A DNA stretch of 64,000 bases from contig CM020620.1 in the NCBI GenBank assembly GCA_009829735.1, positions 10,051,794-10,115,793 of the forward strand, given 5' to 3'. The translations under genes and the position numbers were made by a program. The DNA is from Pyropia yezoensis. Lineage: Eukaryota > Rhodophyta > Bangiophyceae > Bangiales > Bangiaceae. Below are positions 1,279-63,669 of the stretch, one piece after another. Under the pieces are notes generated by a model that worked only from the letters and a program-made list of their open reading frames with translations, had not been told where the DNA came from and searched no databases. Within the stretch, counting starts at the first letter, position 1; every line of letters starts with the position of its first letter.

Positions 1279-1315
<37 letters not shown>

Positions 1316-1996: not shown

Positions 1997-2037
<41 letters not shown>

Positions 2038-12892: not shown

Positions 12893-15800
12893 ATGGCTAG
12901 CTCGGATCCCCCGTCGTCCGGGGAGTACTCGGGTGACGCACGTACTTCAGTGCCTTTGAACGCTGGTGAGACACAGGTGGGTTTACCTGGGGTCGCAGAG
13001 GGACTAGAGGTCCCTCAAGCCAGCAGGACTGGAAGTGCGGGCGGGCAACAGGCCACCCCGACTCAGTCGGGAGTTCACGCGGGTGACACTTCTGATGCGG
13101 GTGGGCCGAAGTCTGGCCACCGTGTGGTAAGCTCAACGGGAACGTCCCAAGGGGTGAGGACTGTCCCCGCGGGTTCCACTCGGGTTGGAGCCAACTTTGG
13201 CTTGGAGCCGTCACCAACTAGGCTTTCGGAGGACGGCGGACGTCCGTTGGTCGGCGATGGGCTCGCGCCCATGCCCCCGGTTGAGAATCCTGAGGATCGT
13301 GGTTACCCCTCAGGTGGACTCCCGGAGCCGGACCGAGACTCAACTGGAGTCGACAACCCACTCCTCGCGGAAACGGTCCGTCGGGAGGCGACCAATGTGT
13401 TACGGCAGACTTTGCCGGACCTGGTGGTCACGATGACGAATACTATTCTGAATCAGATTGTGGCGAGTTTGCCAGATGGCCTTAATGTCCAGACCGGATT
13501 GGGGCTTTCGAGCCCGCAGGCGCAGGGGGAATCCCTCCTGACGCCTACTCCGGGTCGCCCCGAACAGGGGGCGACCCCTGTGACTCCCAACGTGGGAGCC
13601 ACACCATACTCGGTGGGGCGTACGCCCGTCACGGGGGAGTTCCCCTCGGAAACGCCGGCGGCTACACCAAGCTCGCCGCGCCAGACTATAGGCACTGAGG
13701 GTCAACTTATCCCAGTGCCACAGCGGCTGTTCCCTCAACGTGAGGTGCCGCCCAAGATCCAGGTAGCCAACCCGGTCTACCAGAGGATCTTTGACTGTGA
13801 GACCTACACCCTCCACAACAAGTCGGTGGCGTATGGTCCTGGCCAGGCCCGAGCCATGGGCCGTGCCAAGAAGAATGCACTTCACTCTTTTGGGCACAAA
13901 GCGGAGTGGGATGGAACTCCCCCCTCCGTGTCTTTGAGTTTCTGCGTCGTTTCACAAAAGCATGTGACGACAATGCCATAAGTGAAGGCATGGCTTTCTA
14001 TATACTACAGGAGTTTACGAAGGGCGACCTGCGGACAGAACTTATGTCCGTCATGCCCAGTTCCTCAAGTGGAGGCGCTGGTGAGGTGACGTCCTATTTG
14101 GAGCTCATCAACTGGTTGTTGAGAGCCATGGTGGATGAAGCAGCGTTGGCTTCTCAAGTTGAGGAGTTTACCCAAGCTCACCAGGAAGAGGCTGAGGACG
14201 AGTTGTCCTTTGCAGAGCGAGTTCGTAAGCTCAACAATCTTTGTGGGTTTCTTCATCCACAAGCGGTGGTGAAGAGTCGGTTTGTGGAGGGACTCCATTG
14301 GTCAGTCCGCATGGAGACCCAGGAGCATAACACTGCCCGGGCGACCCTGGCCGAGTTGGCTAGGTTCGCCTACCGCAGAGGTGAGGCCTACCGCACGTTG
14401 CGGGAGGAACAACGCCAGGAGCGTCAGGCCGAGTTGGCCAAGGAACGCGAGGAGGCGCGCCAGGTCAGAGAGCTGAGGGAGGCATGCCGAATCCGCAAGG
14501 AATGGGTGGTAGCTGCCGTGGGGACTTCCCAGGGTACCTCTTCGTCTTCCCCAGTCGGGAAGACCCCTCCGGGAACTGACAATCGGTGTTGGAACTGCAA
14601 CTCCGATGGACACTGGGCATATGATTGCCCCAAGTTGAGTAAACGCATTCAACAACTTGTTAAGAATGCGAGTCGGGTCGGCTGGGAACGAAGTACGTTC
14701 ACGCCGCGAGGGTGGGCCACGACCGGTAGTGGCGGTCGCCACGCCCACGGCGGAGGGGGCGGACACGTCGTCCTCAGACTCGTCGTCTTCCCCTTCGTCC
14801 TCAGATTCGGACGCCAAGTCGGCGGGAAACGAATGACCGTTGGAGCTGGCCGTCCGAAGCTCACAACGGCAGCCCCGGCCAAGTGGGCCAGGAGGACGAA
14901 CCAACCGTGCCGGATACTGCGGCGACCTAAGGGAGTCCGCCCACCTCGGGTAGGACTCCCCAAGAACGTAAACCCACGTCGGGTCATCGCGGTGCTGACG
15001 GGTGAGAACTTCCAGGTGGCTGGACGGGTGCAACTTGCCCCCGGCCGCGCCTGTTGTGCCCGTATCGTACTTGATACCGGGTCAGGAGCCTCCTTGATAC
15101 GCAAGACGCTATTACCAAAGGAGATGAAGCTCCAACGCTGGAGGTCCAAAGCTGACCATCTGATCGATATCAATGGTGGGGTACTTCCCATCGTTGGTGC
15201 CGTGACCATACCAACTAGGTTGGGGACCCATAAGGTCGACGTGACCTATGGAATAGTCGAGAATATATCGGTACCCCTGCTTCTGGGTACCCCTTATGTT
15301 GTAACTCAAGTCCCTTTGATTTGTGGCCCTGAGTACTGGGTCACGTTGATGAATGGGGAGACCATCCCCATCCTTGGTGAGGGAAAGTCTGTGGCTCCTG
15401 TGACAGTCTCACAGTCGAAGCCCGTTTGCTCTGTGAGGGAAGGGTTTACTGCTACCCTGCGTTTAGCCCGTAAAGTCACGTTGCCCCCCATCTCGGTGGC
15501 GCACGTTGACGTTGTAACTGATTATACGGGGAACGGGTTGGTGCACCCTCACCCCCGTCTTGCTCGCAAGCACCAAGTGCATGTTGCCCTTGGCACGATG
15601 GACTCCAAAGCCGGAGTCCCGTGGAGGATCCAGGTTATGAACCTGAGCTCGTCGCCCCAGTACTTCAAGTCGGGAGCCAAGTTCGGCTATATCGACCAAC
15701 ATGAGGGACCGGTAGTAGCGGTCACCCTCAATGCGGGCGCGAGTAGCAACCCGAAGTCCGGGAAGGAGAAGCACCAAGCCAAGTCGGCCGCCTCTCCTCG

Positions 15801-15906
15801 GCCCCATGTGAACATGGAGGGTGTTCCACCCAGGTTGAGGGTTCAAGTTGAACGCCTCTTGGACCAATATCACAAGTTGTGGGATGGTCAGTTGGGACTC
15901 ATGTGA
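12893..15906 (+). pseudogene. gag-protease region of element 1 (frameshifted)
   Basis: The first ATG after the leader is at 12893. The frame is open to about 13920, then the conserved reading continues in another frame after a C6 run (13919-13924), so one base is missing or extra. The downstream part holds a gag core (EFLRRFTKACDD... region), a CCHC zinc knuckle CWNCNSDGHWAYDC (about 14586-14630) and an aspartic protease site VLDTGSGASLI (about 15068-15100). The N-terminal 300 residues are Pro/Thr/Gly-rich and disordered-looking. The frame ends at TGA 15904-15906, directly before the RT domain. The equivalent Ty3-type junction is normally open, so this stop is probably a mutation rather than a true gag-pol boundary. 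Confidence 0.88.
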
Positions 15907-16671
15907 GCCACCCAACACCGGATCGAGTTGAAACCCGGTGCACCCCCTATACGCCAACAACCGTATAGGGGAGGACCCCGTTCAAGGGCCCTCGTCAAGG
16001 AGCAAGTCGCTCGCATGGAGGCCCTCGATGTGATCGAGGCCAGCAACGCCGAGTGGGCGAGTCCGGTGGTTATTGTCCCCAAAGTTGATGGGACCCCCCG
16101 GTTCTGCATCGACTACCGTAAGCTCAACGAGAGCACGGTGAAGGACAGTTATCCCCTACCTAGGATCGACGACTGTCTGGACTCTCTGGGGGAGGCAAAC
16201 GTGTTCTCTACCCTGGACTGTAACGCGGGGTACTGGCAAATTCCCATTGCCCCGGAAGACAGGCATAAAACTACCTTTACCTGTCACTGTGGTACCTACC
16301 AGTGCAAGCGCCTACCGTTTGGACTATGTAACGCGCCGGCAACTTTCCAGCGCGCTATGGACATGATTCTGGCCGGAGTACGGTGGCAGATCTGTCTCGT
16401 GTACCTAGACGATATCATTGTGTTCTCCCGAAGTCCGGAGGAACACATTGGCCATCTTGGCCAGGTGTTCAAGCTACTTGCTGACGCCGGTGTGTCACTG
16501 AAGGCGAGTAAGTGCCACCTCTTCACTCAAGGGGTGGAGTACTTGGGACACGTTGTCCGTCCGGGGCGCCTCAGTGTCAACGAGAAGAACTTGAGGGCCA
16601 TTCGTAAGGCTCAGTACCCCCGGACCCAGACCCAGATGAGGAGCTTCCTCGGGATGTGTAACGTGTACTGA
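15907..16671 (+). pseudogene. Reverse transcriptase domain of element 1
   Basis: In frame with the protease part after TGA 15904. Ty3/gypsy RT landmarks are present in order: VIEASNAEWASPVVIVPK, RFCIDYRKLNEST, STLDCNAGYWQIPI, LPFGLCNAPATFQRAMD and the catalytic LVYLDDIIVFS (Y-x-DD box), then HVVRPGRLSVNEKN. It is broken by TGA 16669-16671 within the segment SFLGMCNVY/RFTKGFAK, where related elements encode Arg. CGA to TGA is a one-step change. RT makes cDNA from element RNA; this copy could not do so without suppression of two stops. Confidence 0.93.
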
Positions 16672-18817
16672 CGTTTCACCAAGGGCTTCGCCAAGGTGGC
16701 GAAGCCGTTGAATGAGCTAGTTAGCTCAACGCTACCGAAGAACCTGCCTCCCCCAAGTCGGGTGGAGCAGGAATTTTTTGAGACTCTTCGGGACATTTTG
16801 CTGAAGCCCCCTATCCTGGCTATTCCCAGGTTGGGAGGCCACTACATCCTGGACGTGGACGCTAGCTACGACCAACTTGGTTGTGTGTTGCTTCAGCAGA
16901 AGCCGGACAAGGAGTACTTGCCGGTGGGATACTTCAGCAAGGGGCTGAACTCGGCCGAGAAGAACTACGGAGTCACCGAGTTGGAAGGACTCGCGGTGGT
17001 GTGGGCGGTGACGTCACTTCGTCACTACCTAGAGGGTGAGAAGTTCCTCATCCGCTGTGACTACCGCGCGTTGCAGTTCATCTTCAAGACGGATTGTACG
17101 AACACTCGTCTCAACCGGTGGAGGGTGCGACTGGCACCCTTCAGCTTTGACATTGAGTACCGACCTGGCAGGCAACATGCCCTTGCCGACGGCCTTTCTC
17201 GGGTACCCACCGAGGGGCTGGACACTAACTCAGTCGATGACGACATCCCCATCGTGGGGGTAGTCACGCGCTCGGGTCAGGCGTTGAACCCCGAGGCGCC
17301 AGGGAACAAGAAGTACTTGCCCCTGTCCCTGGACGAGGTGGTAAAGTCCCAGGCCGAGGACCCCTTCTGCAAGTCGCAGAGGGATACACTGGATACAGCG
17401 GCGGAGACACGGTTCTTTCTCGGAGATGATGGCCTCCTCTTGAGGAGGGGGGTATTCCACGGGACCGAACAACTTGTCGTCCCCGCATCCCTCAAGGACA
17501 GTATTCTTGACAGGGAGCATAACGCTCCCACCGGTGGACACCTGGGGTCTCGTAAACTGTACCAGACCCTGAGGACCAGGTTCTACTGGCCGTCCATGGT
17601 GATGGACATCTACAGTTGGGTGGCTGCCTGCACAAGTTGTGCACAGAACCGTCTGATGGAACGGCGGCCTACTACGGCTATGCTATTGTTCCCGGCCAAG
17701 GAGCCCTTTGCCGCGTTGGCAATGGACATCCTTGGGCCGCTGCCAGTGACCGAGGATGGCAACCAGTACCTCCTGGTCATCTGTGACCGCTTCACGAAAC
17801 TTACGCGAGCGATCCCACTGGCAGAGATAACGGCCATGTCGGTCGTGGCAGCCTTCCTAGATCACTGGGTTGCCGCGTATGGCATCCCGGATAGTACACT
17901 ATCGGACAATGGACCGCAATTTTGCGTCTGCGCTGTTTCAGGGAGTGCTGGATATGTTGGGGGTTAAGGCAAACTATGCCACCCCCTACCACCCACAAAC
18001 TAATGGGCAGGTGGAGCGCTTCAACAAAACTATTGTTCGGCAGCTGCGCCACTATGTGAGTGAGCATGTGAAAACGTGGGACCAATACATTTCTATTCTT
18101 ACCACTGCCTACAATTCGCAGGTTCACTCATCTACCGGGGAAGTACCCCTCGCTTTTGTGACCCCCCGTCGCGTGCGGTCTATTGCCGTGCGGCGGCCGC
18201 TCCCAACTAGGGAGGATGGTGGCAGTACGCCTACTCCTACTGAGAGTAAGGCGGAGTTCGCTGCTAGGCTTGAAAACCTCATCCCTAAAGTCAGGGCTGA
18301 GATGGACAAAGCACAAAAGCGCTACAAGCGTACCTTTGACAAGAAGGTGCGCAATGCTAAGCATGTCCCCGAGCAGGGTGACTGGGTATTGGTTCACTCA
18401 CACACCCCAACTGGGGGTAAGTAGGTATTCCAGACGAAGGGGCCGTACCAGGTCCTTCGTACTGATGGGCGGCGCTTCACCATCGAAAGTGACGATGGGG
18501 TCCGCACAGTGAACGGACAGGACGTGGTCAAAGTTGCACCACCTCCTGCAGGCGACCCAGCTTGGGCGCGGGCGTTGGAAGCGTGGCGCCTCCCCTCGCT
18601 GCCTGCGGCCAAACAGGGCCCGCAGGAGTACGTGTTCGATAAGTTCATCGACCACGGCTGGGATGAGGACACTAACCGCCTCATGTTGAGGGTGCGTTGG
18701 TTCGGCTACAAAGCCAGGGATGATACGTGGGAGTATGTGGAGGACCTTCCCGCTGAGAAGGTCCGGGCATACTGTGGCCAGGATGAGATAGACCCTGACA
18801 GCCCCCCCTCAACGTGA
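16672..18817 (+). pseudogene. RNase H, integrase and chromodomain of element 1
   Basis: Continues in the RT frame. RNase H: ILDVDASYDQLGC, VTELEGLAVVWAV and IRCDYRALQFI. Integrase: an HHCC zinc site (GGHLGSRKLY to CTSCAQNR), then DDE residues in AMDILGPLP, LSDNGPQF and TNGQVERFN. An extra T in TTTT at 17920-17923 shifts the frame within the second integrase motif. A TAG at 18422-18424 interrupts the C-terminal region before FQTKGPYQVLRTDG. The last part (about 18625-18790) is a chromodomain, KFIDHGWDED, RVRWFGYKARDDTWEYVEDL, typical of chromoviruses and thought to guide integration to modified chromatin. Confidence 0.92.
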
Positions 18818-19559
18818 GGGAAGTCCGAGTAACAGTGCCAAGAGAGTGCTTCAAGCCGAAGTGGTCGAGTAACCGTGGCAGCAACGCCGGGAACCCGTAG
18901 GGGACCTCAACTTGAGGCCACCACTCGGGCTTCTTCGGGTAGTACTGCTCCTTACTGGCAGCAGACTGCTGAGGAAACTCAAGTTGAGCCGAGGTCACCA
19001 AGTAGGGACCTCGCCGGAAGTCCTTCTCCATCCGCACATCAAAGTGATGAGTGTGCGGGTCAGCCTGGTGAAGGTACGGGGGGCGAGTTGCCACCGCGTC
19101 CCAAGTGAAGGTCGGCAAGTCGCCGGGACCCGGGATAGTTCCCCCGCGGTCCATCATGGCCTTGGCCCGTTGCACGTCTTCGACCTCCTCATCATCCAGG
19201 AAGGCAAACTGGTCCGTCCTGAAGCCGGCCGGGAACCCGACCCTACGGGGATACTTCTCCCGTAGGCGGTCCCACACCTGACCCATCGCTGCGCCAAGTC
19301 GGCCACAGCGAAGAACAGTCAACCCCTCCTCATACAGAGGCCAAGCGGGGTAAAACCACCGCCCCAAGGCCTCACGCGGGACAACGTGTCCCGCCTCCGG
19401 GGGAGATCCCGCTGTCAACCCAAAGCCGGGGGACGCGGGAGTCCCATCCCCCGGAGCGATCGCGGAGCCCCCGCCGGAAGTCCCGGCGGGCGCTGCACCG
19501 TAGGAGGTGTCCTCCATACGTTCATCGAGGGAGTCCGTCTCCACCCCCGGAGTCGCCAT
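18681..19559 (-). CDS. Antisense accessory ORF of element 1 (aORF-A type)
   Basis: A 292-residue frame from ATG 19559, antisense to the element, filling the space between pol and the 3' LTR. Its 3' end overlaps the pol chromodomain on the opposite strand by about 137 bases. N-terminal 70 residues are acidic and Gly/Ala/Pro-rich. A denser region follows: LGRWFYPAWPLYEEGL, AAMGQVWDRLREKYP, FAFLDDEEVEDVQRAKAMMD. The minus ORF at 59217-59795 in another chromovirus has the same layout (GDAGPASPAE versus GDGTPASPGF; RRMAGVWTAFRHLYP versus AAMGQVWDRLREKYP; then FADDWKLARQLDDA). Placement and similarity argue against a chance frame. No family is recognised; antisense ORFs near the 3' LTR are known in some plant Ty3/gypsy lineages. 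Confidence 0.55.
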   Translation of the reverse strand: MATPGVETDSLDERMEDTSYGAAPAGTSGGGSAIAPGDGTPASPGFGLTAGSPPEAGHVVPREALGRWFYPAWPLYEEGLTVLRCGRLGAAMGQVWDRLREKYPRRVGFPAGFRTDQFAFLDDEEVEDVQRAKAMMDRGGTIPGPGDLPTFTWDAVATRPPYLHQADPHTHHFDVRMEKDFRRGPYLVTSAQLEFPQQSAASKEQYYPKKPEWWPQVEVPYGFPALLPRLLDHFGLKHSLGTVTRTSLTLRGGCQGLSHPGHSMPGPSQREGPPHTPTYHPWLCSRTNAPST

Positions 19560-48010: not shown

Positions 48011-48013
<3 letters not shown>

Positions 48014-48026
48014 ATACCCGACCGGT

Positions 48027-48526
48027 NNNNNNNNNNNNNNNNNNNNNNNNNNNNNNNNNNNNNNNNNNNNNNNNNNNNNNNNNNNNNNNNNNNNNNNNNN
48101 NNNNNNNNNNNNNNNNNNNNNNNNNNNNNNNNNNNNNNNNNNNNNNNNNNNNNNNNNNNNNNNNNNNNNNNNNNNNNNNNNNNNNNNNNNNNNNNNNNNN
48201 NNNNNNNNNNNNNNNNNNNNNNNNNNNNNNNNNNNNNNNNNNNNNNNNNNNNNNNNNNNNNNNNNNNNNNNNNNNNNNNNNNNNNNNNNNNNNNNNNNNN
48301 NNNNNNNNNNNNNNNNNNNNNNNNNNNNNNNNNNNNNNNNNNNNNNNNNNNNNNNNNNNNNNNNNNNNNNNNNNNNNNNNNNNNNNNNNNNNNNNNNNNN
48401 NNNNNNNNNNNNNNNNNNNNNNNNNNNNNNNNNNNNNNNNNNNNNNNNNNNNNNNNNNNNNNNNNNNNNNNNNNNNNNNNNNNNNNNNNNNNNNNNNNNN
48501 NNNNNNNNNNNNNNNNNNNNNNNNNN
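48027..48526. other. Assembly gap (500 N)
   Basis: Exactly 500 N, so the true length is probably unknown. The right flank is a G run (48527-48540). Confidence 0.99.
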
Positions 48527-48755
48527 GGGGGGGGGGGGGGTGAGGGGGGGGGTGAGGGCGGGTGACGCGCTGGACGCTCGTTGGTGGCACCGAGGCGGCA
48601 CCGGCGACGAAGGGCGGTGGCCGCCGCGTGCGTTGCGGTGGCCTGCCAACAGACAGACGGCTGCCCACCCACCAAAGCGGGGCGCGACGGGCGGGGACGA
48701 CGGCTCTCAAAGGACCGGGCGCGGCGGGGGGAGTACCATACAGGAGCGTTTTTAT

Positions 48756-51495: not shown

Positions 51496-51768
51496 GCCCT
51501 CCTCGCCCGCCGCCGCCGCCGCCGCCGCCGTCGCCGCCGCCGCCGCCGTCGCCGCCGCCACCGCCGGGCCCGTCCAGGCCGCCCGCAGCGGCGGCGACGC
51601 GCAGCAGCAGCGGCGGCAACAGGGTGCGGTATATAGTGGGCGGGGTCGCAGCTGGCGGCGCAGGGTGACTGAGATGCGCCTGACCCAGTGTGACAAATAA
51701 TCAGATAGACATGTACAGTGTGTAGAGAGATGGTGCCAGTCAGTCAGTGCCAGCCAGATCGTGACATT

Positions 51769-51959
51769 CAGATTGTGGCAGTCAGATTGTGGCAGTCAGA
51801 TTGTGGCAGTCAGATTGTGGCAGTCAGATTGTGGCAGTCAGATTGTGGCAGTCAGATTGTGGCAGTCAGATTGTGGCAGTCAGATTGTGGCAGTCAGATT
51901 GTGGCAGTCAGATTGTGGCAGTCAGATTGTGGCAGTCAGATTGTGGCAGTCAGATTGTG
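51769..51959. repeat. 14-bp tandem minisatellite (about 13.6 copies)
   Basis: The unit CAGATTGTGGCAGT is repeated almost perfectly; only the edges vary. Because 14 is not divisible by 3 and the array lacks plus-strand stops, all three plus frames encode the same 14-residue repeat, so the apparent open frames are artefacts. Confidence 0.97.
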
Positions 51960-53175
51960 TCAAACTGGCTGGTCTCTTTTTGATTTTCTCAAAAGATGTC
52001 ACGTGTTAAGTTTAGGCCCTCTTCTCCCTCCACTTCCCCTCTTCCCGTGAAGCGCAAGCGCAGGCGCAAGCACAGCTGTGCTGTGCTTGCGCCTGTGCTT
52101 GCGCGTGCGCCGCCGCCGCCGCAACCGCGGCCGCCGCCTGCGCCTGCGCCTGCGCCACGACTGCCGCCGCCGCCCTGGTCTGCTTTGACAGCCAACGCTG
52201 GGGAGCGCCGGGGGGGCTTGTCGCCACCCCCGCCGCCGCGGTCCCGCCACCACTGCCGCCGCCCACCGCGGCGGCGGCCGCCCCCGGTCCACCCCCCTCC
52301 GCGAACGCGGCAGCAGCAGCAGCAGCGGCCGCAGCGGCCGCCCGGCGGCTGGCAGCACCGCGGACGCCGCCGCGGTGGCGGCCGGGTGCCCTGTCCGCCC
52401 CGCCGCCACCGCCGCCGCCACGCGCCCCAACCTTGCGGTCCCCCGCCGCGGGCGAAGCGGCCGAAGATGACGATAGGGGTGGGGGTGCCGGCGAGGATGC
52501 CGGCGGCGGCCGGCGGGGCGGGGGAGTTAGCGGCGATGGTGGGGGCGGGGGTGCCGACACGGGGAGGTGCCCGCCGCCCCCCGCACCGCCCCCGGACGCG
52601 GCGGCCGCCACCGCGGCCGCGGCTGGCGCCGCCGCCGCCAGCCGCGCGGTGACGGCCGCCGCATTCTGGGCGGCAGCCGCGCCCTGCTGCTGCTGCAGCG
52701 TGGTGGCGGCCGATTTATCGACGTCGCCTAGGTTGCTAAAAATGAATAATTTTTGTTGCGGCGTTCATCAATATGTACATTTATTAATTGAATTCAACAT
52801 TCTTTTAACATTCTTATGCATGTTTTTTGGAGTGAGTAAATACACTATACATGGCGTATTGAGGTGTGCTGTTCTGCCTCTGATTCAGGGTTGTCACGAT
52901 AAAAACGTATACGTTTGATGTTTGTAATTTATCTATAGATTAACCTATAGATTAATCTATCTGGGGCTCTCCGCTTTAGATTAAGTAATAACAATTCTTG
53001 TATTTGTACCACATACATTCCTGATTTCTGAGCCAATTGCGGCCACAATTGTTCGCTTGAGACTGGCTGTTGTCTCACCCGAACCCTTCTCCTCATTGCA
53101 CGAAAGTCCCCCCTCGGAGCGGCCGCGGGCCAACATCGTCGGAGTCACGGGGTGGCTTCCAGTGACACAAGGAAC
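51960..53175. other. Intergenic: low-complexity then AT-rich sequence
   Basis: From 52010 to about 52735 the sequence is Ala/Pro/Gly-coding-like in one plus frame, with no start and no recognisable domain. It may be a fragment of a host gene. From 52736 the composition turns abruptly AT-rich, including repeated ATAGATTAA motifs (about 52933-52960) at the edge of the hAT fossil. Confidence 0.4.
52052..52104. repeat. 25-bp inverted repeat (hairpin) with 3-base loop
   Basis: Arms 52052-52076 and 52080-52104 are complementary at 24 of 25 positions. The arms consist of GCGCAAG-type units. Confidence 0.9.
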
Positions 53176-53950: not shown

Positions 53951-55810
53951 ATTAAACACAATAAAACCTAAAAAACGCATTGCTTTAATCTACAGATTAA
54001 TCAAGTCAAAATAAAAAATGTTATGTTTTTGCCAACCATGCTCTGATTGCTGTTCACGGTTTCGCCGAGTTTGCTTTGTTGCACCCCGTGGGTGACATCT
54101 GCTTCGTGCCTGTGGTTGCTGGTTGCGACCCGGCCCTCCCTTTCCCCAGAAAGCCCCGCGCAGTCTCCTTCGCACTTGCCCCTATTGTGCTTCGCGTGGT
54201 GACGCATGAAGGACTCTCGCACAGCTCCTGAGGTCGGCGCCGGTGCACGAGCTTTTAGCGAGTCTTAGGGTCGCGGTTAGATAGACACTTCAGCGACGGC
54301 TGCGGCTGGAGAAGAGTGTACGGCGGGAATCAAACAAGGTGCGGATGACGGTGCTGGAGGCTCAAGGCTCCCGACCTCGCGCCCCAGTATTGGCTCGGGC
54401 CGCAGGGCGAGTGACACGATGTTGGAGTTTGATTTGCTGCCTGGAGTCGGGGCTGTTTGTCGTTTTTGTAAAAACCTGGTGCAGGACCAGCAGCTGAGCG
54501 GGACTCCGCTAGGAAGTCATCTATAAAACTGCGGCAAGTGTCGCCGCGCCCCAGCAGGAGGGGGGGGGGCGCTGGCTCAGCCTCTTCGCAGGGCCCTCGC
54601 GCGGTCTCGACGGAGGGGCGCCCGAAGATGGCAATGGAAGGAGAGAGGTGTTGGCACCTCCGCCGGCACGGCGAGCGTGCGGAGACCATGGTGGAACAAC
54701 TACGAATCAAGTTGAAATTGTCCATGATTTTCAGTACAAGTGGTCACTTAAGTAGACACTCAATGAACGGTGCGTCTCTGGGACCCTTTCAAAGTGCATT
54801 CATTAATTGATACATTCATGAAAATAAAATAAATTCATTGAACCTAGGGGATTTCGCACGTACGCTGACGACGGTGCATTGACAACTGTGCATTGGTTGG
54901 GCACTATGCCACTGTCAACCACCTCCATCGCTTCTTCTGGGCTGGAGGTGCAGACGCACATTGTTCTTCAGTACTCGCTGCACGTTTACAAAGAGCTTGT
55001 AGGGAGAGCTTTCCCGTAAGTGCATTTTTCAGGGTTCCTTCTGTATGGCTTATGGTGCGCTGCATCGTCGGAGTTTCCTAACACACAAATGATGGACTAA
55101 CGAACTGGAAACGCGCACCCGGGGACGTTCCTGATTTTGTGACGTGTTCCAGAGTGTGAGTAGAGAAGATGTCTACGGCATGGTGCGTTTGATCTTTCAC
55201 GCGACGATGGCCTCGAAGCGGAGAGCAAGAAAGCAACTAAATGCCAAACGGTGAATATCAGAACCGCTTTTTTTCTGCGGTTTGTCTCGGGAGGCTGGTC
55301 ACGAACTGGTTGCGGAATGCCACAGCGTAGCGGAGTGGAAGATGTCGTCCGGAGAGGAATCGTGGCGGTTTCCTATAGAAGACTCAGTTTTATGCGCATC
55401 CAAGTTTCTCACTTTCTCATCACAGTCGATGCAGCTCCACGAGCTCATTCTGTTCATACAGAATTTGAGTGTGAGATTAGTGAGTGGGAATAGAATTAAC
55501 AGCGATAGTCGCCCCCGACCTGACGAGGTTAGACTCGGGTCGGGGCCACTCGGGGGTATGGGGGGGCTACCTGGCCAACGTGCCGAGGATCCCCCAGATG
55601 CACGTTAAGAGGGACAGCGAGGCGCCCTTGGCCCGCGCCCTCAGGAAAAAGACAACTGCGCGTTTGCTTTCCTCTTCCCCGTGTGCAATACCATGCGTAT
55701 CTGTTCGCTCTGCGAGCAGGCACGTGAGGCAACTGGCATACCACTCTCGTAGTTCCCCTTTCTGTGTTACCTGTCCCTTTCCCCCGAGGGATACTGACAC
55801 GTGTCTAACA
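53951..55810. other. Intergenic, no gene recognised
   Basis: Average composition, stops in all frames. An AT-rich patch lies at about 54795-54845. Homology to chromovirus pol begins abruptly at about 55811. Confidence 0.5.
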
Positions 55811-57924
55811 GGATCGAGTTTTATACCACAGAGCTCCGCGACTGTCTTCTGAAGCCTCCCATATTGGCCCTCCCTCGGGAGAGAGCCCATTACATTGTGG
55901 AGGTGGACACAAGCTATGAGCAGCTGGGTTGCGCCTTGCTGCAGCAGCAAGAGAACGGGGAGTATCTCCCCGTTGGGTATTTTAGTCGGGGTTTATCCCC
56001 GGCGGAACGGAACTATTGTGCCACAGAAATTGAGGCCCTAGAGGTCGTATGGTCTGTGACCTACATGCGTTCCTTCTTGGAAGGAACCGAATTTCTGGTA
56101 CGTTGTGATCACTCCGCCCTCACTTCGGTGATGACGAGTAGTAGCCCCAATCGACGCCTTACGGGCTGGAAACTCCGCTTGGCGGAGTTTTCGTACCAGA
56201 TTAAGCACAAGCCGGGTGAGGACCACAAGGTGGCTGATGCTCTATCGCGCCTTCCTACGGATTGCTTGGATAAGACTCCTCTGAATGATCAAATCCCCGT
56301 TCTAGCGGTGACGAGGTCAGCAAAGGCCCTTACGGACCGGAGCCCTAAGGGCCTCGGCAAGATTACGCTCCGAGAGCTCATTGAGGCCCAGGCTTCGGAT
56401 GAGTTCTGCAAGCAGCGTCGCATGGAGGGGCCTATGGTCTCTCCGAAGGATGCCCGTTGGCAACGCAATGCCTTGTTCTTCGAAGATGACGATGGTGTAC
56501 TGTGTCGCCATTTCCTCCTCAGGGGGAACAACCAGTGGGTCGTTCCAATGTCGCTTCGAAAGCGTATCCTGGAAATGTACGATGACGCGCCTACGGCGGG
56601 TCACCCGAGGTTTCGGAAGATGTATCGTACGATGCGGCAGTATTTTTACTGGCCCGCCCTAGTGGCGGACGTATACGGGTATGTTTATAACTGCCCAGAA
56701 TGCACTAGGAATCGCATATCGGACAAGAGGCATACGTCTCCTATGAAGCTGTTCCCCGCGCGGGAGCTATTCCAAGCCGTGGCTATGGACTTGTTGGGCC
56801 CGCTCCCGAAGACGGAGAATGGTCACACTATGCTCCTGGTAATATGTGATCGCTTCACCAAGTTGGTGAGGGCCGTCCCACTGTCGGAAACCACTGCCCT
56901 TGGGGTAGCTTCGGCTTTCATTGACTACTTAGTAGCTTCCTACAGCATCCCGGATTCTACGCTCACGGACAACGGACCTCAGTTAGCTGCCGTGTACTTC
57001 GAACGAGTCATGGGGCTCCTAGGGATCGCCACAAACTTCACGACCCCATATCACCCACAGACCAATGGTCAAGTGGAGCGGTATAACAAGACGATTATGC
57101 GACAGCTACGGGCGTACTCGTCCGAGCACCCACGGGAATGGGATCGCTATGTGTCCTTACTGACGACTGCATATAATATGCAGGTACATTCGAGTACTGG
57201 GGTTGCCCCACTGACCTTCGTAAGCCCTCGGCGATTGGAGGCCTCGAATATTGAACGTTTACCTAAGGTACGCTCCGTGGACACGGAGGAACCTGACGCC
57301 GATTCGGCGGCGGTTCAATACGTGAAAGAGCTGCGCAACCTAATCCCAAGGGTTAGGAAGAATTTGGATAAGGCCCAACTGGCCTACAAGCGTGTCTATG
57401 ACGCGGGTATTCGAGAAGACAATGAGGCTATGTCTCAAGGGGATTGGATTTATGTGAAATCCTATGCTAAGGGGCAAACCCAGATGTCGTCTAAGGCGAA
57501 GGGACCGTACATGGTGCTACGCACTGACGGTCAACGGTTTCTTATTGAAACCCCTACGGGAGAACAGACCCAGAGTAGTGACAATGTCACAAGCGCTCCC
57601 CCGCCTGAGGCAGGGGACCCGGTGTGGAAACGGGCGCGGGAAGCCCGTGACGCATTCAATGAATGCCCTGAGGAAACCTCGGGGAAGGATGTGTTTGAGT
57701 AGATCGTCGGCCACCAATGGGTGGAAGACGACAACGGGAAATCCGACTTGGACTTCCGAGTCCGTTGGTTTGGCCACGGACCCGAAGTGGACACTTGGCA
57801 CCCCAAGAAGGAGGTACCACGAGCGGCTCTGCTGAAGTATGCCCGGAAGCACAAGCTCCCCATCGGGGGGCGGGACCAAGGGTCCCGACTGTTCCTACCA
57901 GGGGGGATAGACGAAGAAGGATAA
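55811..57924 (+). pseudogene. RNase H-integrase-chromodomain region of element 3
   Basis: One open frame to TAG 57700-57702, then the same frame continues to 57924. RNase H: IVEVDTSYEQLGCALLQQ, TEIEALEVVWSV, VRCDHSALTSV. Integrase: GHPRFRKMYRTMRQYFYWP and CPECTRNR (zinc site), AMDLLGPLPKTENG, LTDNGPQLAAVYF and HPQTNGQVERYNKT, all catalytic residues intact. The chromodomain (IVGHQWVEDDNG, RVRWFGHGPEVDTWHPKKEV) lies beyond the TAG, which replaces a sense codon after GKDVFE. One substitution (CAG or AAG to TAG) accounts for it. Without the 5' half the copy is dead regardless. Confidence 0.92.
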
Positions 57925-58004: not shown

Positions 58005-59075
58005 TTAGTAACCCTGGTGCCCATAGGGCAGGGACCCATCATGGTATCGAGGTCCATGTCCTCCACCACCGTACGCGGCTTCGGCCGCGCCTCGAAGGGA
58101 CGAACTCGGGATCTGCACCATGGTATCCATGTTAGCTCTCCCGAGTTCTCGGTCCAGGCGCTCGGAAAGCGCCGACTGAGATAGCAGTGGCAACGCCACC
58201 GGCGGAATATCCCGCCAGTCCCGACGTGTGGTGAAGATCGCCGCAACGTCGTCAGCCAGACTCGTGTAGGCCCTGCACAGCCCCATAACGAGGGAGTCTT
58301 CGACTGCATCCCTAAGGGATGAGGGGGGTGGATCAAAGACTCGCGCCAGTGCCGCGATGGTAGTACCCGGGATAGGTCGAGGCATCGCCAAAGGCGGACC
58401 ACCCCAACGGAAGGGAGCCACTGGCTCAGGGACCGTTGCCCGCCGTCCGCTAGGCGACCGAACCTCCTCGCCGGGGGGATAGTTCCTCCTAAGGGGCGTT
58501 CCGAAGGGTCGCCCAGAAAATGACGCGCCTTGGACACGGCTCCCCCTCGGAGAGTTCGGCTGCATAGACGGGCCATACCGCTCCTGGCCAAACCCGGGGA
58601 GACAAGGCCCCTCTTCCTCCATGCGAGGCTCCGGATTGGGCACCCGCGTGGCGGCCATTAAGCCCGAAGGGTAGGGTAGCTCCTCGTGACCCAGCCCTTC
58701 TTCCAAGAAGAGAACTCCCTCGGCGGTCAAAGACTTCGCGCATCGTACCAGCGCACGAGCTCGAAGAGAAAGACCCAAGAAGGAGGGCAAAGCCTTTTGA
58801 TGGACCTTCTCGATCAGGAGGAGAAGTGATCGGAGGTATGCCGCGGATTCGGGGTTACCCTGACACAACGCGTCAATGGGGCTCTCCGGGAGAGCACGCA
58901 GAAGGGGGATCGGGACAAGCCAAGAATGTCCGTAATACAACCCCGAGGAAAGCAGGACGTCGGCTACCTCCACCAGCCAGCAGGTGTTCAGAGCTGCTCT
59001 GTCCGCCGAGTCCGGGCCGTCGGCCATCAGCCGACTCCCCCGTACGGCAACTAAGTTGCCGATACGCGCGGCCAT
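58005..59075 (-). CDS. Antisense accessory ORF B of element 3
   Basis: 356 residues from ATG 59075, antisense to pol and ending only 80 bases from it. N-terminal half is globular-looking: NTCWLVEVADVLLSSGLYYG, then SPIDALCQGNPESAAYLRSL, then SFLGLSLRARALVRCAKSL. The middle (residues about 150-245) is Pro/Gly/Arg-rich linker. A C-terminal helical part contains SLVMGLCRAYTSLADDVAAI and RRDWRDIPPVALPLLSQSAL. The plus ORF at 62536-63669 has the same arrangement, with SCLRYFGSVLASRPVHPL and GQASSFLLSV in the N-terminal half and STLVQLCTEVTRVIDRREIA in the C-terminal part. The shared pattern is weak but ordered. Intact over 1 kb although the neighbouring pol is broken. Function unknown. Confidence 0.6.
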   Translation of the reverse strand: MAARIGNLVAVRGSRLMADGPDSADRAALNTCWLVEVADVLLSSGLYYGHSWLVPIPLLRALPESPIDALCQGNPESAAYLRSLLLLIEKVHQKALPSFLGLSLRARALVRCAKSLTAEGVLFLEEGLGHEELPYPSGLMAATRVPNPEPRMEEEGPCLPGFGQERYGPSMQPNSPRGSRVQGASFSGRPFGTPLRRNYPPGEEVRSPSGRRATVPEPVAPFRWGGPPLAMPRPIPGTTIAALARVFDPPPSSLRDAVEDSLVMGLCRAYTSLADDVAAIFTTRRDWRDIPPVALPLLSQSALSERLDRELGRANMDTMVQIPSSSLRGAAEAAYGGGGHGPRYHDGSLPYGHQGY

Positions 59076-59216
59076 GCCGCGCGGAACCTCGTAATCGCTC
59101 CAACAAGAGGGAATGACCGGCTACAACTTGAGGCGCTCTCCGTGGGAGAAGCACTCGACCTCCCGTTGCTCTGCGCAGGCAAAGATGCCACGGCGCCGAC
59201 GGTGCCGATGCTCCGC

Positions 59217-59795
59217 CTACGCTTGGCGTAGGAAGTAACCGCGAGGGCGTCGCCCAATGACCGCCAACGGACCCGGGGAATACGCCAAGTCGAAGACCGG
59301 CATTGTCCCTTGTGGTAACGGGGGGCGCGAGCATGCGTCGTCCAGCTGCCGAGCGAGCTTCCAATCGTCCGCAAAGCGGAGCACGGGGTAGTCCGTCGGC
59401 GTCCCAGTCGGGACCTCGTAGAGGTCCGGGTAGAGATGGCGGAATGCTGTCCACACCCCCGCCATGCGGCGTGGATCCACCTCAACCCACAGGTCGGTGA
59501 CCACGCCGGGATGTGGGTGCGGATAGGGCCACTCCTGATGGAAGGGGATAATTTCCCCGAAGGGGCCAGGCCCCTCTGAGTCCGCCAACGGCGGAGCAGG
59601 TACCTCCGCCGGCGAAGCCGGACCGGCATCACCCTGGCCACTCCCAGCGTCGTCCATCAGGACGTCGCCAGCGGCGGCGGGTGGCATACTCGTGGCGGAA
59701 GGGCCACGCGGGGAAGACGGAGCAGGCGGGGACGAGCCCTCGCTATCGTCACCCATGGTGGCGGTGTTGCCCGGTTGCCCCGACCGGGTAGTCAT
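59217..59795 (-). CDS. Antisense accessory ORF A of element 3
   Basis: 192 residues from ATG 59795 (an internal ATG at 59756, MGDDSEGSS, is an alternative). The same frame stays open upstream without need. The N-terminus is Ser/Pro/Asp-rich and disordered. The C-terminal approximately 110 residues are compact: FHQEWPYPHPHPGVVTDLWV, RRMAGVWTAFRHLYPDLYEV, LRFADDWKLARQLDDACSRP, GRRPRGYFLRQA. It resembles the antisense ORF of element 1 (18681-19559) and, more weakly, the ORF at 61300-62520. Located upstream of ORF B on the same strand with 141 bases between them. Unknown family. Confidence 0.58.
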   Translation of the reverse strand: MTTRSGQPGNTATMGDDSEGSSPPAPSSPRGPSATSMPPAAAGDVLMDDAGSGQGDAGPASPAEVPAPPLADSEGPGPFGEIIPFHQEWPYPHPHPGVVTDLWVEVDPRRMAGVWTAFRHLYPDLYEVPTGTPTDYPVLRFADDWKLARQLDDACSRPPLPQGTMPVFDLAYSPGPLAVIGRRPRGYFLRQA

Positions 59796-60662
59796 ATATG
59801 ACCACTCTCCGCAGGAGACGGGGGGGGGGGAATGTGTGTGGATGTCACCCCTAGCCTTAGGGTGAGGGAGAGGGGGACGCGCGTATGCCGGTGGTAGCGA
59901 GGAGGAGATGAGGGGGGAAGGAGACGGTGGCCGTCCTTGCGGCGAGCACCCGTCGCCACTACCGCCTGCTCCGATTGACCCCTCGCGGGTGGGCAGACGG
60001 CCCTCTCCTACCCATCGGCCCCCCATCACAGGGATGAGGAGGTTGCAGAGGAGGGCCCCAAACCCCTCGCTCCCGGCCACGCAAGGAGAGCCAGTCCCCT
60101 CGCGTCCCCACCCTGTGCGGGCAGGGCCGTGGGAGGCGACGGGCCATATCCTTGCCGCGACCCCCACCCCTCGAATGGTGGTTTTGAGGGGGGTGTCCCT
60201 ACGTATCCCCCCCTGTCGTTCGACGGGGGCGGCCATGACTGTCTCCCCAAGGGGGAAAACCATGGGGCCGTGCTGACCCAGTGTCATCCACCCCCCACCG
60301 GGATGGGTACACTCTGTGGTGAGGACGGCGTGCTGCCAAGTGGCACTGTGTAGCACAATAGGGATCCGTCGCACGTCCACTCTCAGGGAACACTCACCAA
60401 GGGGGATCGACACCAACGTCACCGGGAGGCCAAGGTTGCTGTCCTTGGAGCGCAAGCCACGGGACCAAGATGGGAGCCCAAATGGGAGGGGTTTGTTGTT
60501 CTGCCTTGGCCGGCGGTGGAATCGCCGCCGGCCCCCACGTTATAAACCCTCGGAGACACTACTAACTACCCTCCACCCCAAGATGCAAGTCCCTCTGGTC
60601 ATACGTAACTTATAGATACCGTGACCAGTACGGACTATCAAATTGAAAGCCAAGGATTAGAA

Positions 60663-60710
60663 GTAGCCCCCCTAATATTAGGGTCACAATATGGCCAACC
60701 ATATTGCTAC
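60663..60710. repeat. Nested inverted repeats
   Basis: A perfect 8-bp stem CAATATGG/CCATATTG (60687-60694 and 60699-60706, 4-base loop), a 10-bp palindrome CTAATATTAG (60672-60681) and outer arms GTAGC/GCTAC (60663-60667 and 60706-60710) lie within 48 bases of AT-rich sequence. Confidence 0.85.
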
Positions 60711-61187
60711 ATATCCCCCCCTTAGATTCGGCCCGTCCTCGGGTCGAGTTGCATTCGGGTTACCGAATGTAAGTGGGTCGCGTGACCGTTTACCAGTCGG
60801 GTGGGGCTTTGCGCCCTGTCGCGACAGACACCCCTTTTCGAGGTTGTCTGAGGGGGGTGCCCCCCTTTGTGTGGTACACACACGATCCGTTTTCCGGACC
60901 GTTAAATTCCCGATGCGGGTTTCTGTTCACGACCCCCCTTTCCGAGGGGTGGTGCAAGCGGATCCGCCACCAGGTGTCTGGTGGTAGGGGGGCCCCTCTC
61001 GTGTGGACGATTGAGTGGAGGGCGGGGGCTGCCCGCGTTGAGTGGGGGCGGTTGGGGGTGACCCCCCTTGATTGCCCCGTGTGGGGGGGGCGTGGCTCCG
61101 GTCCAGGTGCCTGGGTGGAGCGCCCTCGTAGCTCGGCTGGCGTGGGTCGTCCCGCGCTGCCGTATCGCTCGTGCTGAGCTGTGTGGT

Positions 61188-61193
61188 TATAAG
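61188..61193 (+). promoter_or_regulatory. TATA-like element upstream of the ORF A/B pair
   Basis: TATAAG within G/C-rich sequence, about 107 bases before ATG 61300. Confidence 0.45.
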
Positions 61194-61299
61194 CGCGGTT
61201 GCCCGCGCTTCCCTGGCTCGTCCGCGCGAGCGTTCCTTGTACCGGGTCGAGCCCGCCTCGGCTTTTCTGACGGGGCGCCCCTGCTACCCTGGTTTCACC

Positions 61300-62520
61300 A
61301 TGTCGGACCCCCAGGTACCCGGGGGCGAGGACGACTTCCTGCTTGAGGAGGAGGAAGAGGTGATGGTGGACGACGTTCCCGTCTCTGCCACCGCCGCCGA
61401 GTGCTTCTTAGCGAGCTCGTCGGAGGACGAGGACGACCGGGTGACCGTTCGTGCGGCCCCGGAAGGCGCGCCGGGCGGGTTGTCGTCCGTGTGTAGCGGC
61501 ACGACGGCTCCGTCGGGTGGCGGAAAACCGCGTGTAGCGGTGGCCTCTACCGCTACTCCTCCGGCGGCCCGGATGGCTTCAGTCGCCGGTGCCGGCGCGG
61601 CTCTACCTCAAGACGGTGTCGCCGGCGTGGCGGATGGTAGTGGCGGCACCCCGGCCGGTACGGCGGGTCAAGACGGCGCGGGTGCCCGCCCGGTTGGTGT
61701 GTCCGCTGCGGCTGGTAGCGGGTCTACCCGTGCTGCCCCCGTGGTACCCTCGTCGGGCCCGGGTGGCGGCGATGCTCTGCCCGCGGTGCCGCGGACGCGT
61801 GATGGTCAAGAGTTATCTACCCCGATGGCAGTGGACTCCGGGAGCTACTCCGGGCGGGCGCCCGCCCTTCTTCTTCCTCCTCGGCCTCGTGCACCTTCGG
61901 CGCCGGCCCATCTGCCGGTGGGGCATCCCCCGGCGCCCCCGATTCTTCCTGGTCTTGCCCGGGTTGCCCCGTTGGGTGGCGGCGTCGCCGTGGCGGCGGG
62001 TCAACCCGCCATGTCGATGTCCGACTTGGTGGCTCGGGTTCGAGGCATGACTGTGCAAGAGTCAATGGAGTCCGCTGGGCGGATGAGGGTGGACTTCCAC
62101 CAATCGCGTCTCTCTGGAGGGACTTCCCGCCGCGTCAGGGTGGACCCGAGTTGGGAGCGGGAGTTGGTGCGGCTGGTCAACCAGCCGAACGCGGTGCGGG
62201 TGGAACACCATTGGATCCTGAGTCAGCCGGACGACCGGCATGCGCAGCTCTGGCGCACCCGGGTGGGACGGGGTGAGGTCTACCTCGACCCCGCCTTCGG
62301 GGTATGCGACCTGATTGCCCCCGCGTTGCCGCGGGAGGTTGACTACCCGGCTAGTGCTCGGGGGATTGCGGCGGCGGCGGAGCCGGTTGCGTTTGGGGAG
62401 ACGGTGGGCGATACCGGTCGGTATCCCGACTTTGATTATTACCCGGGGGTATCCCCGTATCTGTCGTTGACGGCTCCCTACCCGCCTATGTCGGGTTTGA
62501 AGTCGGCGTCGAGCTGGTGA
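61300..62520 (+). CDS. Accessory-type ORF A (third copy), acidic N-terminus
   Basis: 406 residues from ATG 61300, the first ATG downstream of a TATAAG motif. Residues 1-50 are strongly acidic (a run of Glu after DDFLL, then SSSEDEDDR). Residues 60-240 are Ala/Gly/Pro/Val-rich and disordered. Residues about 245-350 are compact: MSDLVARVRGMTVQESMESA, RRVRVDPSWERELVRLVNQP, EHHWILSQPDDRHAQLWRTR, VYLDPAFGVCDLIAPALP. The C-terminus is Tyr/Pro-rich (PDFDYYPGVSPYLSL). The disordered-acidic start, a compact domain with VDP...LV and DD..AQLW, and its place before ORF B match the element 3 antisense pair in layout. Sequence similarity is weak by eye. It ends TGA CGT, a stop context known to be leaky, in the same frame as ORF B. 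Confidence 0.6.
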   Translation: MSDPQVPGGEDDFLLEEEEEVMVDDVPVSATAAECFLASSSEDEDDRVTVRAAPEGAPGGLSSVCSGTTAPSGGGKPRVAVASTATPPAARMASVAGAGAALPQDGVAGVADGSGGTPAGTAGQDGAGARPVGVSAAAGSGSTRAAPVVPSSGPGGGDALPAVPRTRDGQELSTPMAVDSGSYSGRAPALLLPPRPRAPSAPAHLPVGHPPAPPILPGLARVAPLGGGVAVAAGQPAMSMSDLVARVRGMTVQESMESAGRMRVDFHQSRLSGGTSRRVRVDPSWERELVRLVNQPNAVRVEHHWILSQPDDRHAQLWRTRVGRGEVYLDPAFGVCDLIAPALPREVDYPASARGIAAAAEPVAFGETVGDTGRYPDFDYYPGVSPYLSLTAPYPPMSGLKSASSW

Positions 62521-62535
62521 CGTAACCATGGTGTC

Positions 62536-63669
62536 ATGGCGGATGTGTTCCGCACCGATATAACGTGTGCGTTGCAGACCGGCAACGGTCGTGCGCTGGT
62601 ATACACTCCCGTGCGCCCGCCTCTGTGGCAGGAGGGGTGGGAACCCGCCCCTGCTTTCCGGTTTGACACCGGCTCCTGTCTCCGATACTTCGGGAGTGTG
62701 TTGGCCTCCCGGCCGGTCCACCCGTTGCAGGGTACCTTCACCCTTGAGGTTACCCTCGGGCAGGCTTCCTCCTTCTTGCTGTCCGTCCGCCGGCAGGGGC
62801 GCCTGTTTCATCTTCCGACGGGTGTCCGTCGGCACATCGCGCAGTTGGGCGTGGACCTGATAGCCGCCAAGACCGGGTTGGCCCGGGAGTTCGAGGCCCT
62901 GCTGGCTGTTCACGATGCCGTGAACTGGGCTGGGGTGTTGGCCCTTCCCCCGTACCGGGACCCGCAGGCTGGGGCTTCCCCCTTGCCTCGTCACTCGTTG
63001 CGTATCCGGCGTACTCAGCCGGGTGAGCCCAATTGCCTTGGGTGGGCGTCCACCGAGGCCGTTGCTGACCCGGGTATTCCCATGGTTATCCATGACCCTC
63101 TTCAGGTCCTTGCCCCGTGGTTCGGTAACCCGGTACCGGCGGCGGTTGGCCGTCGTCCCCGAGAGTGGGGCTCTGCGGGTGGGGAGCGTGAGGTGTCCCG
63201 TCGTCGGGCGGAGCCCCGCCGGGGTTACGGTAGAGCCCCTTCGCTGGGGTCCTACCGGGCCTCATATCAGGCGTCACCGGCTCCGGTGGTGGCCGCGTCG
63301 GCTCCTGTGGCTCCGCTGGCTGCGCCAGGGTCACCTCCCGCCCCTCTCATGCATGACTGGGGTCCCCGTCTCTGGTATGAGGGCGTTGACGCCCTTGTTG
63401 CCCGCGCAATGCGGGAGGGTCTCTCTGTTAGCTGGGGGGACATCCCCCCAGGTGCTGCGCTGGTTGGGTCAGCGCGTTGCTTCGGTGGTGTGCTTGACCG
63501 CCTCCAGATAGCTCTGGAGGACGTGGAGGCTGGCCGCAGCACCCTCGTCCAGCTATGCACCGAGGTAACTCGGGTGATTGACCGTCGTGAGATTGCCGAC
63601 CGGTGGAGCACGGAGGTATACGCGCTTACGCGTGAGTGGCCTCCCTCGGGCAGTGGGTCTACCCACTGA
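62536..63669 (+). CDS. Accessory-type ORF B (third copy)
   Basis: 377 residues from ATG 62536, 15 bases after the ORF A stop and in the same frame. Residues 1-150 look globular: LVYTPVRPPLWQEGW, GSCLRYFGSVLASRPVHPLQ, LEVTLGQASSFLLSVRRQG, LPTGVRRHIAQLGVDLIAAK. The middle is Arg/Pro/Ala/Ser-rich linker. Residues about 275-365 are helical: WYEGVDALVARAMREGLSVS, LDRLQIALEDVEAGRSTLVQ, TRVIDRREIADRWSTEVYAL. Its best counterpart here is the minus ORF at 58005-59075. Two cistrons 15 bases apart are unusual for a nuclear genome; readthrough, reinitiation, polycistronic mRNA or an element-type expression strategy are possible. I know no family for it. Confidence 0.62.
   Translation: MADVFRTDITCALQTGNGRALVYTPVRPPLWQEGWEPAPAFRFDTGSCLRYFGSVLASRPVHPLQGTFTLEVTLGQASSFLLSVRRQGRLFHLPTGVRRHIAQLGVDLIAAKTGLAREFEALLAVHDAVNWAGVLALPPYRDPQAGASPLPRHSLRIRRTQPGEPNCLGWASTEAVADPGIPMVIHDPLQVLAPWFGNPVPAAVGRRPREWGSAGGEREVSRRRAEPRRGYGRAPSLGSYRASYQASPAPVVAASAPVAPLAAPGSPPAPLMHDWGPRLWYEGVDALVARAMREGLSVSWGDIPPGAALVGSARCFGGVLDRLQIALEDVEAGRSTLVQLCTEVTRVIDRREIADRWSTEVYALTREWPPSGSGSTH

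What the first reader, a model, noticed from the sequence alone, without database searches (positions are those of the whole stretch)
58005..63669. Recurring two-ORF accessory module linked to chromoviruses
Element 3 carries two intact ORFs (A: 59217-59795; B: 58005-59075) antisense to pol, in the space before its 3' LTR. About 1.5 kb away a plus-strand pair (61300-62520 and 62536-63669) repeats the order A then B with comparable architecture: A with a disordered acidic or Ser/Pro start and compact C-terminal domain, B with a globular N-terminus, Pro/Gly/Arg linker and helical C-terminus. Element 1 has an A-type antisense ORF in the same position. The ORFs are intact although the adjacent pol genes are broken. 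I recognise neither family. Antisense ORFs in plant Ty3/gypsy elements are known, but a conserved A+B pair in this setting may be new. Roles such as silencing suppression or element regulation are speculation.
Basis: partly seen in the sequence, partly recalled or inferred. Interest (0 to 1): 0.85.

Follow-up and report, generated by a model that had tools for sequence, protein, structure and literature searches.

The report
Backwards gene in nori seaweed retrotransposons
Copy-and-paste DNA elements of the nori seaweed carry one extra gene that runs backwards behind their replication genes and shows signs of being kept by natural selection; the suspected two-gene module is that single gene, cut in two by chance mutations in the copies seen here.

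Summary
The ORFs are real and the arrangement recurs, but there is no two-gene module. In intact copies A and B are one frame of 596 codons, and A' and B' one of 789. The window copies are split by in-frame stops at 59217-59219, 59121-59123 and 62518-62520. The A/B junction evolves as coding DNA (dN/dS 0.118).

The plus-strand pair belongs to a second Ty3/gypsy element of about 10.7 kb, on the minus strand and nested in element 3 (5-bp target duplication; LTRs 99.4% identical). So it too is antisense to its own pol.

The genome matches Pyropia yezoensis. Antisense, tail-to-tail aORFs occur in at least four lineages; 19 of 19 loci holding both genes are antisense. dN/dS of the F1 core is 0.10-0.13, of pol 0.085. 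F1 and F2 aORFs are distant homologues. No significant Pfam or PDB relative.

Antisense ORFs before the 3' LTR are known in plants and a fungus. This is a new protein family of that kind, probably an accessory regulator of transposition; not strictly needed, since 16 of 48 F1-type pol places keep only its start.

The parts
58005..59795 (-). Frame of 596 codons, broken in this copy by TAG 59217-59219 and TAG 59121-59123.
   Evidence: single stop-free frame in L002, L004, L005, L006; dN/dS of the A/B junction 0.118.
55801..57702 (+). RNaseH-integrase part of pol of element 3 (F1 lineage); the copy lacks the upstream pol and gag in the window, and its frame stops just before the stretch that codes for the chromodomain-like end in L029.
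61300..63669 (+). Frame of 789 codons, broken in this copy by TGA 62518-62520.
   Evidence: single stop-free frame in L010, L012-L016, L020.
60349..60711 (-). 3' LTR of the nested F2 element (363 bp, TG...CA; partner at L022:6704-7066, 99.4% identical). The element runs on past the window end and carries gag and pol on the minus strand (L022:4298-6490 and 123-4391).
60344..60348 (.). Left copy of the 5-bp target-site duplication CACTG of the F2 insertion (right copy at L022:7067-7071); insertion lies between the start of the F1 aORF and an F1-type LTR (L022:7151-7847).
18855..19079 (-). Remnant of an F4-type aORF, antisense and downstream of the pol of element 1.
   Evidence: 41% over 76 aa to F4 (L044), 31% over 88 aa to F5.
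14992..18583 (+). pol of element 1, which falls next to the F4 lineage in the pol tree; repeats 12296-12701 and 19889-20294 (97-99% identical, spacing 7593) look like its LTRs.

Best explanation
The feature is one antisense accessory gene (aORF) in Ty3/gypsy LTR retrotransposons of a red alga (Pyropia yezoensis), tail-to-tail with pol, between the integrase end and the 3' LTR. It encodes a protein of roughly 600-800 residues in three parts: a disordered, fast-evolving N-tail, a conserved mainly helical core, and an Arg/Gly/Pro-rich basic linker followed by a helical C-end. Shown: single frame, antisense position, homology, purifying selection. Inferred: it is transcribed from a promoter near or in the 3' LTR and its product is an accessory regulator of the element, most likely a nucleic-acid-binding protein acting on expression, silencing or nuclear steps, comparable in role to what has been proposed for plant antisense ORFs. 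It helps the element but is not strictly needed, or can be supplied by other copies.
For: One frame in intact copies. Antisense in 19 of 19 short loci that hold both genes, of 25 examined; the other 6 hold no pol match. Also antisense in L037 and L039 and L032. F1 L002-L035 dN/dS: core pieces 0.132 and 0.103, junction 0.118, linker 0.159, C-end 0.134, N-tail 1.02; pol in the same lineages 0.085. F2 L010-L039b 0.298. Relatives in Pyropia vietnamensis (P0003, P0007, P0008, P0009), and continuous across the A/B junction where the protein covers it (P0007, P0012). Close F1-F3, F1-F4 and F1-F5 profile matches; combined profile against F2 exceeds all shuffles. In F1, F2 and F4 the N-tail is acidic (net -6, -15, -2) and the linker basic (+4, +6, +4); only the linker was computed for F3 (+5).
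Against: Many related pol copies lack it: of 48 F1-type pol places, 27 have the B part, 16 only a short start, 5 nothing within 4 kb; of 22 F3-type, 4 have it and 18 do not. One short-start copy (L046) has about 610 bp of unrelated DNA in place of the core. Direct F1-F2, F2-F3 and F2-F5 profile comparisons are weak. No domain, solved structure or confident model gives a function. No expression data were available. F2 pol shows no Pfam chromodomain.
Confidence: 0.62

Rival explanations
1. Two separate genes A and B form a conserved accessory module.
For: In the window both elements show two ORFs in the same order, and the breaks fall at nearly homologous places.
Against: Intact copies have one frame; the stretch between A and B evolves as coding sequence (dN/dS 0.118) and aligns with the homologous part of F2; relatives in other sources are continuous (P0007, P0012). 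Breaks in other F1 copies fall elsewhere (L007, L008, L018).
Confidence: 0.03
2. The selected product is the antisense RNA, not a protein: a convergent transcript forms double-stranded RNA with the genomic RNA and limits or tunes the element; the frame is a by-product.
For: Tail-to-tail layout with nearly constant end-to-end distance within a lineage would make a long complementary transcript. Antisense RNA roles are discussed for other elements (PMC7264820, passages).
Against: Changes are concentrated at the third codon position (F1 L002-L035: 104, 69, 256 by position) and dN/dS is far below 1 in the core while the N-tail is near 1; RNA-only selection would not do this.
Confidence: 0.1
3. An env-like or structural gene.
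For: Position between pol and the 3' LTR, where env sits in retroviruses.
Against: Antisense orientation in all loci that could be judged. Highest 19-residue hydropathy 1.35-1.76 in seven proteins, so no clear membrane segment (the usual cut-off of about 1.6 is recalled, and the F5 protein alone exceeds it). No similarity to the same elements' gag (six profile comparisons, scores 14-21).
Confidence: 0.05
4. A captured host gene carried along with little function.
For: No gag or pol similarity; F5 copies (at least 22 full-length matches at 83-100%) were not found next to a pol in the two short loci read (L042, L045), so relatives may exist outside LTR elements.
Against: Antisense position shared by lineages whose pol proteins are only about 38% identical, and aORF divergence follows pol divergence; constraint similar to pol. 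No non-repeated host homologue was seen in the rows returned, which are capped.
Confidence: 0.15

Closest known systems
Antisense aORFs (aORF-3R) of plant Ty3/gypsy elements: Grande gene23, RIRE2, Retand ORF4, PvRetro13
   Same: Extra ORF between pol and the 3' LTR, antisense to gag-pol, conserved across copies and species, function unknown; nuclear or DNA-related role proposed (PMC7264820: part 1 of 3 of the text, passages and section 7 seen; PMC11963269: passages seen).
   Different: Host is a red alga, not a flowering plant. No Transposase_28 (PF04195) match in eight intact aORF proteins at E up to 5. The review passages seen do not mention algae ('alga' 0 occurrences in both papers).
Boty of Botrytis cinerea (fungal Ty3/gypsy with an antisense ORF)
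   Same: Antisense ORF in the same position, outside plants (PMC7264820).
   Different: Only named in the review; sequence not compared here.
Antisense genes of deltaretroviruses (HTLV-1 HBZ, HTLV-2 APH-2)
   Same: Works-like comparison only: antisense coding gene near the 3' LTR with a regulatory role (PMC11963269 passages).
   Different: No sequence or domain relation was tested or is suggested; promoter and activity here are unknown.
Extra ORF3s of bdelloid rotifer LTR retrotransposons
   Same: Family-specific extra ORFs 3' of pol, gained by several lineages (PMC5408684 passages).
   Different: Known rotifer ORF3s have recognisable enzyme folds (DEDDy, GDSL); none was found here.

Membership tests
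Antisense aORF between pol and 3' LTR (aORF-3R type) | Antisense to gag-pol | tested here: met
   19 of 19 short loci with both genes (25 examined); L037, L039.
Antisense aORF between pol and 3' LTR (aORF-3R type) | Lies between pol and the 3' LTR | tested here: met
   F1 L029/L030, L031/L032, L033/L034; F2 window/L022, L025/L026, L027/L028; F3 L037/L038, with LTR pairs 98.6-99.6% identical.
Antisense aORF between pol and 3' LTR (aORF-3R type) | Present in most copies of a family | tested here: inconclusive
   27 of 48 F1-type pol places with the B part, 16 with a short start, 5 without; 4 of 22 F3-type with it. Not counted for F2 and F4, whose lists are capped.
Antisense aORF between pol and 3' LTR (aORF-3R type) | Conserved as protein | tested here: met
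   dN/dS 0.163 over the whole F1 frame L002-L035, 0.10-0.13 in core; 0.298 F2 L010-L039b; youngest pairs rise to 0.79-1.20.
Antisense aORF between pol and 3' LTR (aORF-3R type) | Antisense transcription | not testable with these tools
   No RNA data available.
Retand-type aORF | Transposase_28 domain (PF04195) | tested here: not met
   Eight intact aORF proteins, Pfam E up to 5: only DUF6214 in one, E 0.016, below cut-off.
Chromovirus (chromodomain Ty3/gypsy) | Chromodomain at the pol C-end | tested here: inconclusive
   Chromo matches below the curated cut-off in F1 (19.4 bits, cut-off 25.1) and F3 (21.0); none in F2 at E up to 0.1. F4 not tested. The F2 pol end looks chromodomain-like by eye (recalled motif, no call).
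Two-gene accessory module | A and B are separate frames in intact copies | tested here: not met
   Single frames in L002, L004-L006, L010, L012-L016, L020, L035.
env-like gene | Sense orientation with a membrane segment | tested here: not met
   Antisense; hydropathy maxima 1.35-1.76.

The most novel reading that the evidence does not exclude
A previously undescribed family of antisense accessory proteins was already present in the common ancestor of the main Ty3/gypsy lineages of Bangiales red algae, before F1 and F2 pol diverged to 38% identity, has been inherited with pol since, and acts as a dedicated regulator of the element (anti-silencing or feedback control), a red-algal counterpart of the HBZ-like strategy; sub-lineages that dropped the core spread by borrowing the protein from full copies.
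Probability: 0.3. Interest if true: 0.72.

Novelty: new variant of a known kind. Interest (0 to 1): 0.5.

Why it matters
Antisense genes near the 3' LTR have been found repeatedly in plants, a fungus and retroviruses, and the plant ones have no known function. A deeply conserved, high-copy antisense gene in red algae, with a protein family unlike any in Pfam, shows that the strategy reaches far outside flowering plants. The same genome holds closely related elements with the whole gene and with only its start, which is a natural comparison for asking what such genes do for an element.

Tried and rejected
Two-gene reading: rejected because intact copies hold one frame. Relation to the elements' own gag: six profile comparisons gave scores of 14-21, at the level of shuffles, while gag F1 against gag F2 gave 69. 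Fold search: not run, because both structure models are of low confidence (mean pLDDT 39.4 and 34.2). Solved structures: one match at E 0.77, taken as chance. Pfam: DUF6214 at E 0.016-0.036 over the Pro/Arg-rich linker, below cut-off, taken as compositional. Genome-wide orientation count for F2: not possible, searches exhausted; the 19 loci were used instead. Whether F3-type pol copies without a hit carry some other antisense ORF: not examined, their DNA was not fetched. Literature: no red-algal antisense ORF appeared in the listings; this is an open-access library only, and absence there is weak evidence.

Limits of counts: genome searches score only the best candidates, so stop counts there lean towards intact copies (B' 2 of 109 rows with a stop, A' 16 of 102, F4 11 of 74). 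One search used 70 pol rows (6 secondary fragments of the 76 dropped), 50 of 114 B rows, 49 of 95 A rows and 14 of 83 F3 rows; the dropped rows are fragments, duplicates and weak distant matches, and I looked through the remaining lists by eye only. Its limit was 4 kb; two of the five F1 'none' places have an antisense hit about 10 kb further on.
Full report
Host. The window is part of a 107.5-Mb assembly whose three largest contigs are 43.59, 34.33 and 29.39 Mb. The Pyropia yezoensis genome paper gives scaffolds of 29.4, 34.3 and 43.6 Mbp and says nearly half the genome is repeats, mostly LTR retrotransposons (PMC7423979, passages). Named relatives of B' are from Pyropia vietnamensis. I take the host to be P. 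yezoensis.

What is at the coordinates. The four ORFs exist. A (59217-59795) and B (58005-59075) lie on the minus strand, downstream of an RNaseH-integrase frame on the plus strand (55801-57702). In F1 copies elsewhere, A and B are one frame: L002, L004, L005 and L006 (596 codons from the A start), and the more diverged L035. In the window copy two in-frame TAGs divide it. In the same way A' and B' are one 789-codon frame in L010, L012-L016 and L020, divided in the window by one TGA. Breaks in other F1 copies lie elsewhere (L007, L008, L018), so the shared position in the window looks like chance.

The second pair is a nested element. LTR copies of 363 bp, 99.4% identical, lie at window 60349-60711 and at L022:6704-7066. 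They are flanked by the 5-bp duplication CACTG. Between them, on the minus strand, are a gag frame (731 aa) and a pol frame (1423 aa) with protease, reverse transcriptase, RNaseH and integrase matches (the protease matches are below cut-off and the gag has no Pfam match). An F1-type LTR lies at L022:7151-7847. So a 10.7-kb F2 element is inserted between the start of the F1 aORF and what is presumably the F1 3' LTR, and A'B' is antisense to its own pol.

Recurrence and orientation. Complete F1 elements (for example L029/L030, about 9.75 kb, LTRs 99.1% identical) and an F3 element (L037/L038, LTRs 99.1%) have the aORF in the same place. In the short loci, 19 of 19 that hold both genes are antisense, of 25 examined; the other six hold no pol match. 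Two of the 19 are the window's own copies. The distance from the end of the pol match to the end of the aORF is 308-312 bases in eight F1 loci, 457-485 in eight F2 loci and 417 in both F4 loci. Element 1 of the window carries an F4-type remnant, and L032 another F4-type relative antisense to its pol.

How general it is. Of 22 F3-type places (55-59%), 4 have an aORF and 18 do not in the rows compared. None was in sense orientation or upstream (the rows left out are told under Tried and rejected). The one short-start copy read (L046) has pol-end DNA, about 610 bp without similarity, and then DNA for the first part of A, leaving a frame of 103 codons from the homologous ATG. Since several such copies have pol without a stop in the matched part (for example C2:24194308 and C1:30164636), the core is either dispensable or supplied by other copies.

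Selection. Between L002 and L035 dN/dS is 0.163 for the whole frame. By region: N-tail 1.02, A-core 0.132, junction 0.118, B-core 0.103, linker 0.159, C-end 0.134; pol (RNaseH-integrase) between the same lineages 0.085. Changes by codon position are 104, 69 and 256. F2 against F2b (L010-L039b) is 0.298, with core pieces at 0.23 and 0.21. The closest pairs rise to 0.79-1.20, as expected where recent copies decay freely. These are Nei-Gojobori pairwise values on GC-rich DNA; dS of the B-core is 1.56, so values there are rough.

Homology between families. Profile comparisons: F1-F3 probability 100 (E 1.7e-38), F1-F4 98.5 (3.4e-15), F1-F5 99.3 (9.2e-21), F3-F4 98.8, F3-F5 97.3, F4-F5 97.1. F2 is distant: alone against F1 6.6, F3 0.2, F5 0.6, F4 68.3. 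The combined F1+F3+F4+F5 profile against F2 gives 94.05 (score 67.3; best of 60 locally shuffled controls 25.3). With more sequences it gives 92.7 (score 64.7; best of 100 controls 39.5). The aligned stretch runs across the A/B junction. As a yardstick, the gags of F1 and F2 score 69.1, so aORF and gag have diverged about equally. The aORF divergence order follows pol (F1-F3 57%, F1-F4 44-51%, F1-F2 38%).

What the protein is. No Pfam family above cut-off, no solved relative, and models of low confidence. The poor models agree on a run of helices in the core, a strand after it and helices at the C-end, but the two alignments share sequences, so this is weak. In F1, F2 and F4 the N-tail is acidic and the linker basic; for F3 only the linker was computed, and it too is basic. 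Further relatives with one continuous frame came from public collections (P0012, P0013, P0016); only the 7,991 candidates sharing most words were scored.

How it most likely works. Shown: one antisense, selected protein gene that has stayed with pol over long divergence. Inferred: transcription from the 3' LTR side, and a product that binds nucleic acid through its basic linker and regulates the element. Plant antisense ORF proteins have been placed in the nucleus (Grande) or given DNA-binding domains (Retand, PvRetro13) in the literature (PMC7264820 section 7; PMC11963269 passages). The convergent layout would also make double-stranded RNA if both strands were transcribed, which fits a role in balancing or countering silencing; that is conjecture.

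Known or new. Antisense ORFs between pol and the 3' LTR are an established kind in plants and are reported for the fungal element Boty (PMC7264820). This is a new protein family of that kind in a red alga. It lacks the Retand-type Transposase_28 domain. I found no description of it in the listings, which cover open-access papers only.

Noticed in passing
L046 (G000:C2:24196170-24197300) and 15 further places: F1-type elements that keep only the start of the aORF; in L046 about 610 bp of unrelated DNA replaces the core. Several have pol without a stop in the matched part.
   Followed up: partly
L042:1558-2433 (-), L045: F5 aORF family, at least 22 matches over the whole 292-aa query at 83-100%, not next to any pol in the two short loci read; the shared repeat unit is at least 2.2 kb. 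Carrier element unknown.
   Followed up: partly
Pol places with 55-59% identity: 18 of 22 F3-type pol places have no aORF hit within 4 kb in the rows compared, although the F3 lineage has one in L037 and L039.
   Followed up: no
L036:5958-7748 and repeats 2408-4026 / 8388-10000: Related pol (43%) in an element with repeats of at least 1.6 kb, only about 640 bp between pol match and repeat, and no aORF match.
   Followed up: no
window 44293-45039 (-): ORF with a stretch that by eye resembles a Hint/hedgehog-type autoprocessing domain (CFPADATVELRDG...); no search done.
   Followed up: no
window 51686-52007: Tandem array with a 14-bp period, 16 register positions listed.
   Followed up: no
window about 47990-48535: Stretch that translates as X in the ORF list, so a gap or masked bases.
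   Followed up: no
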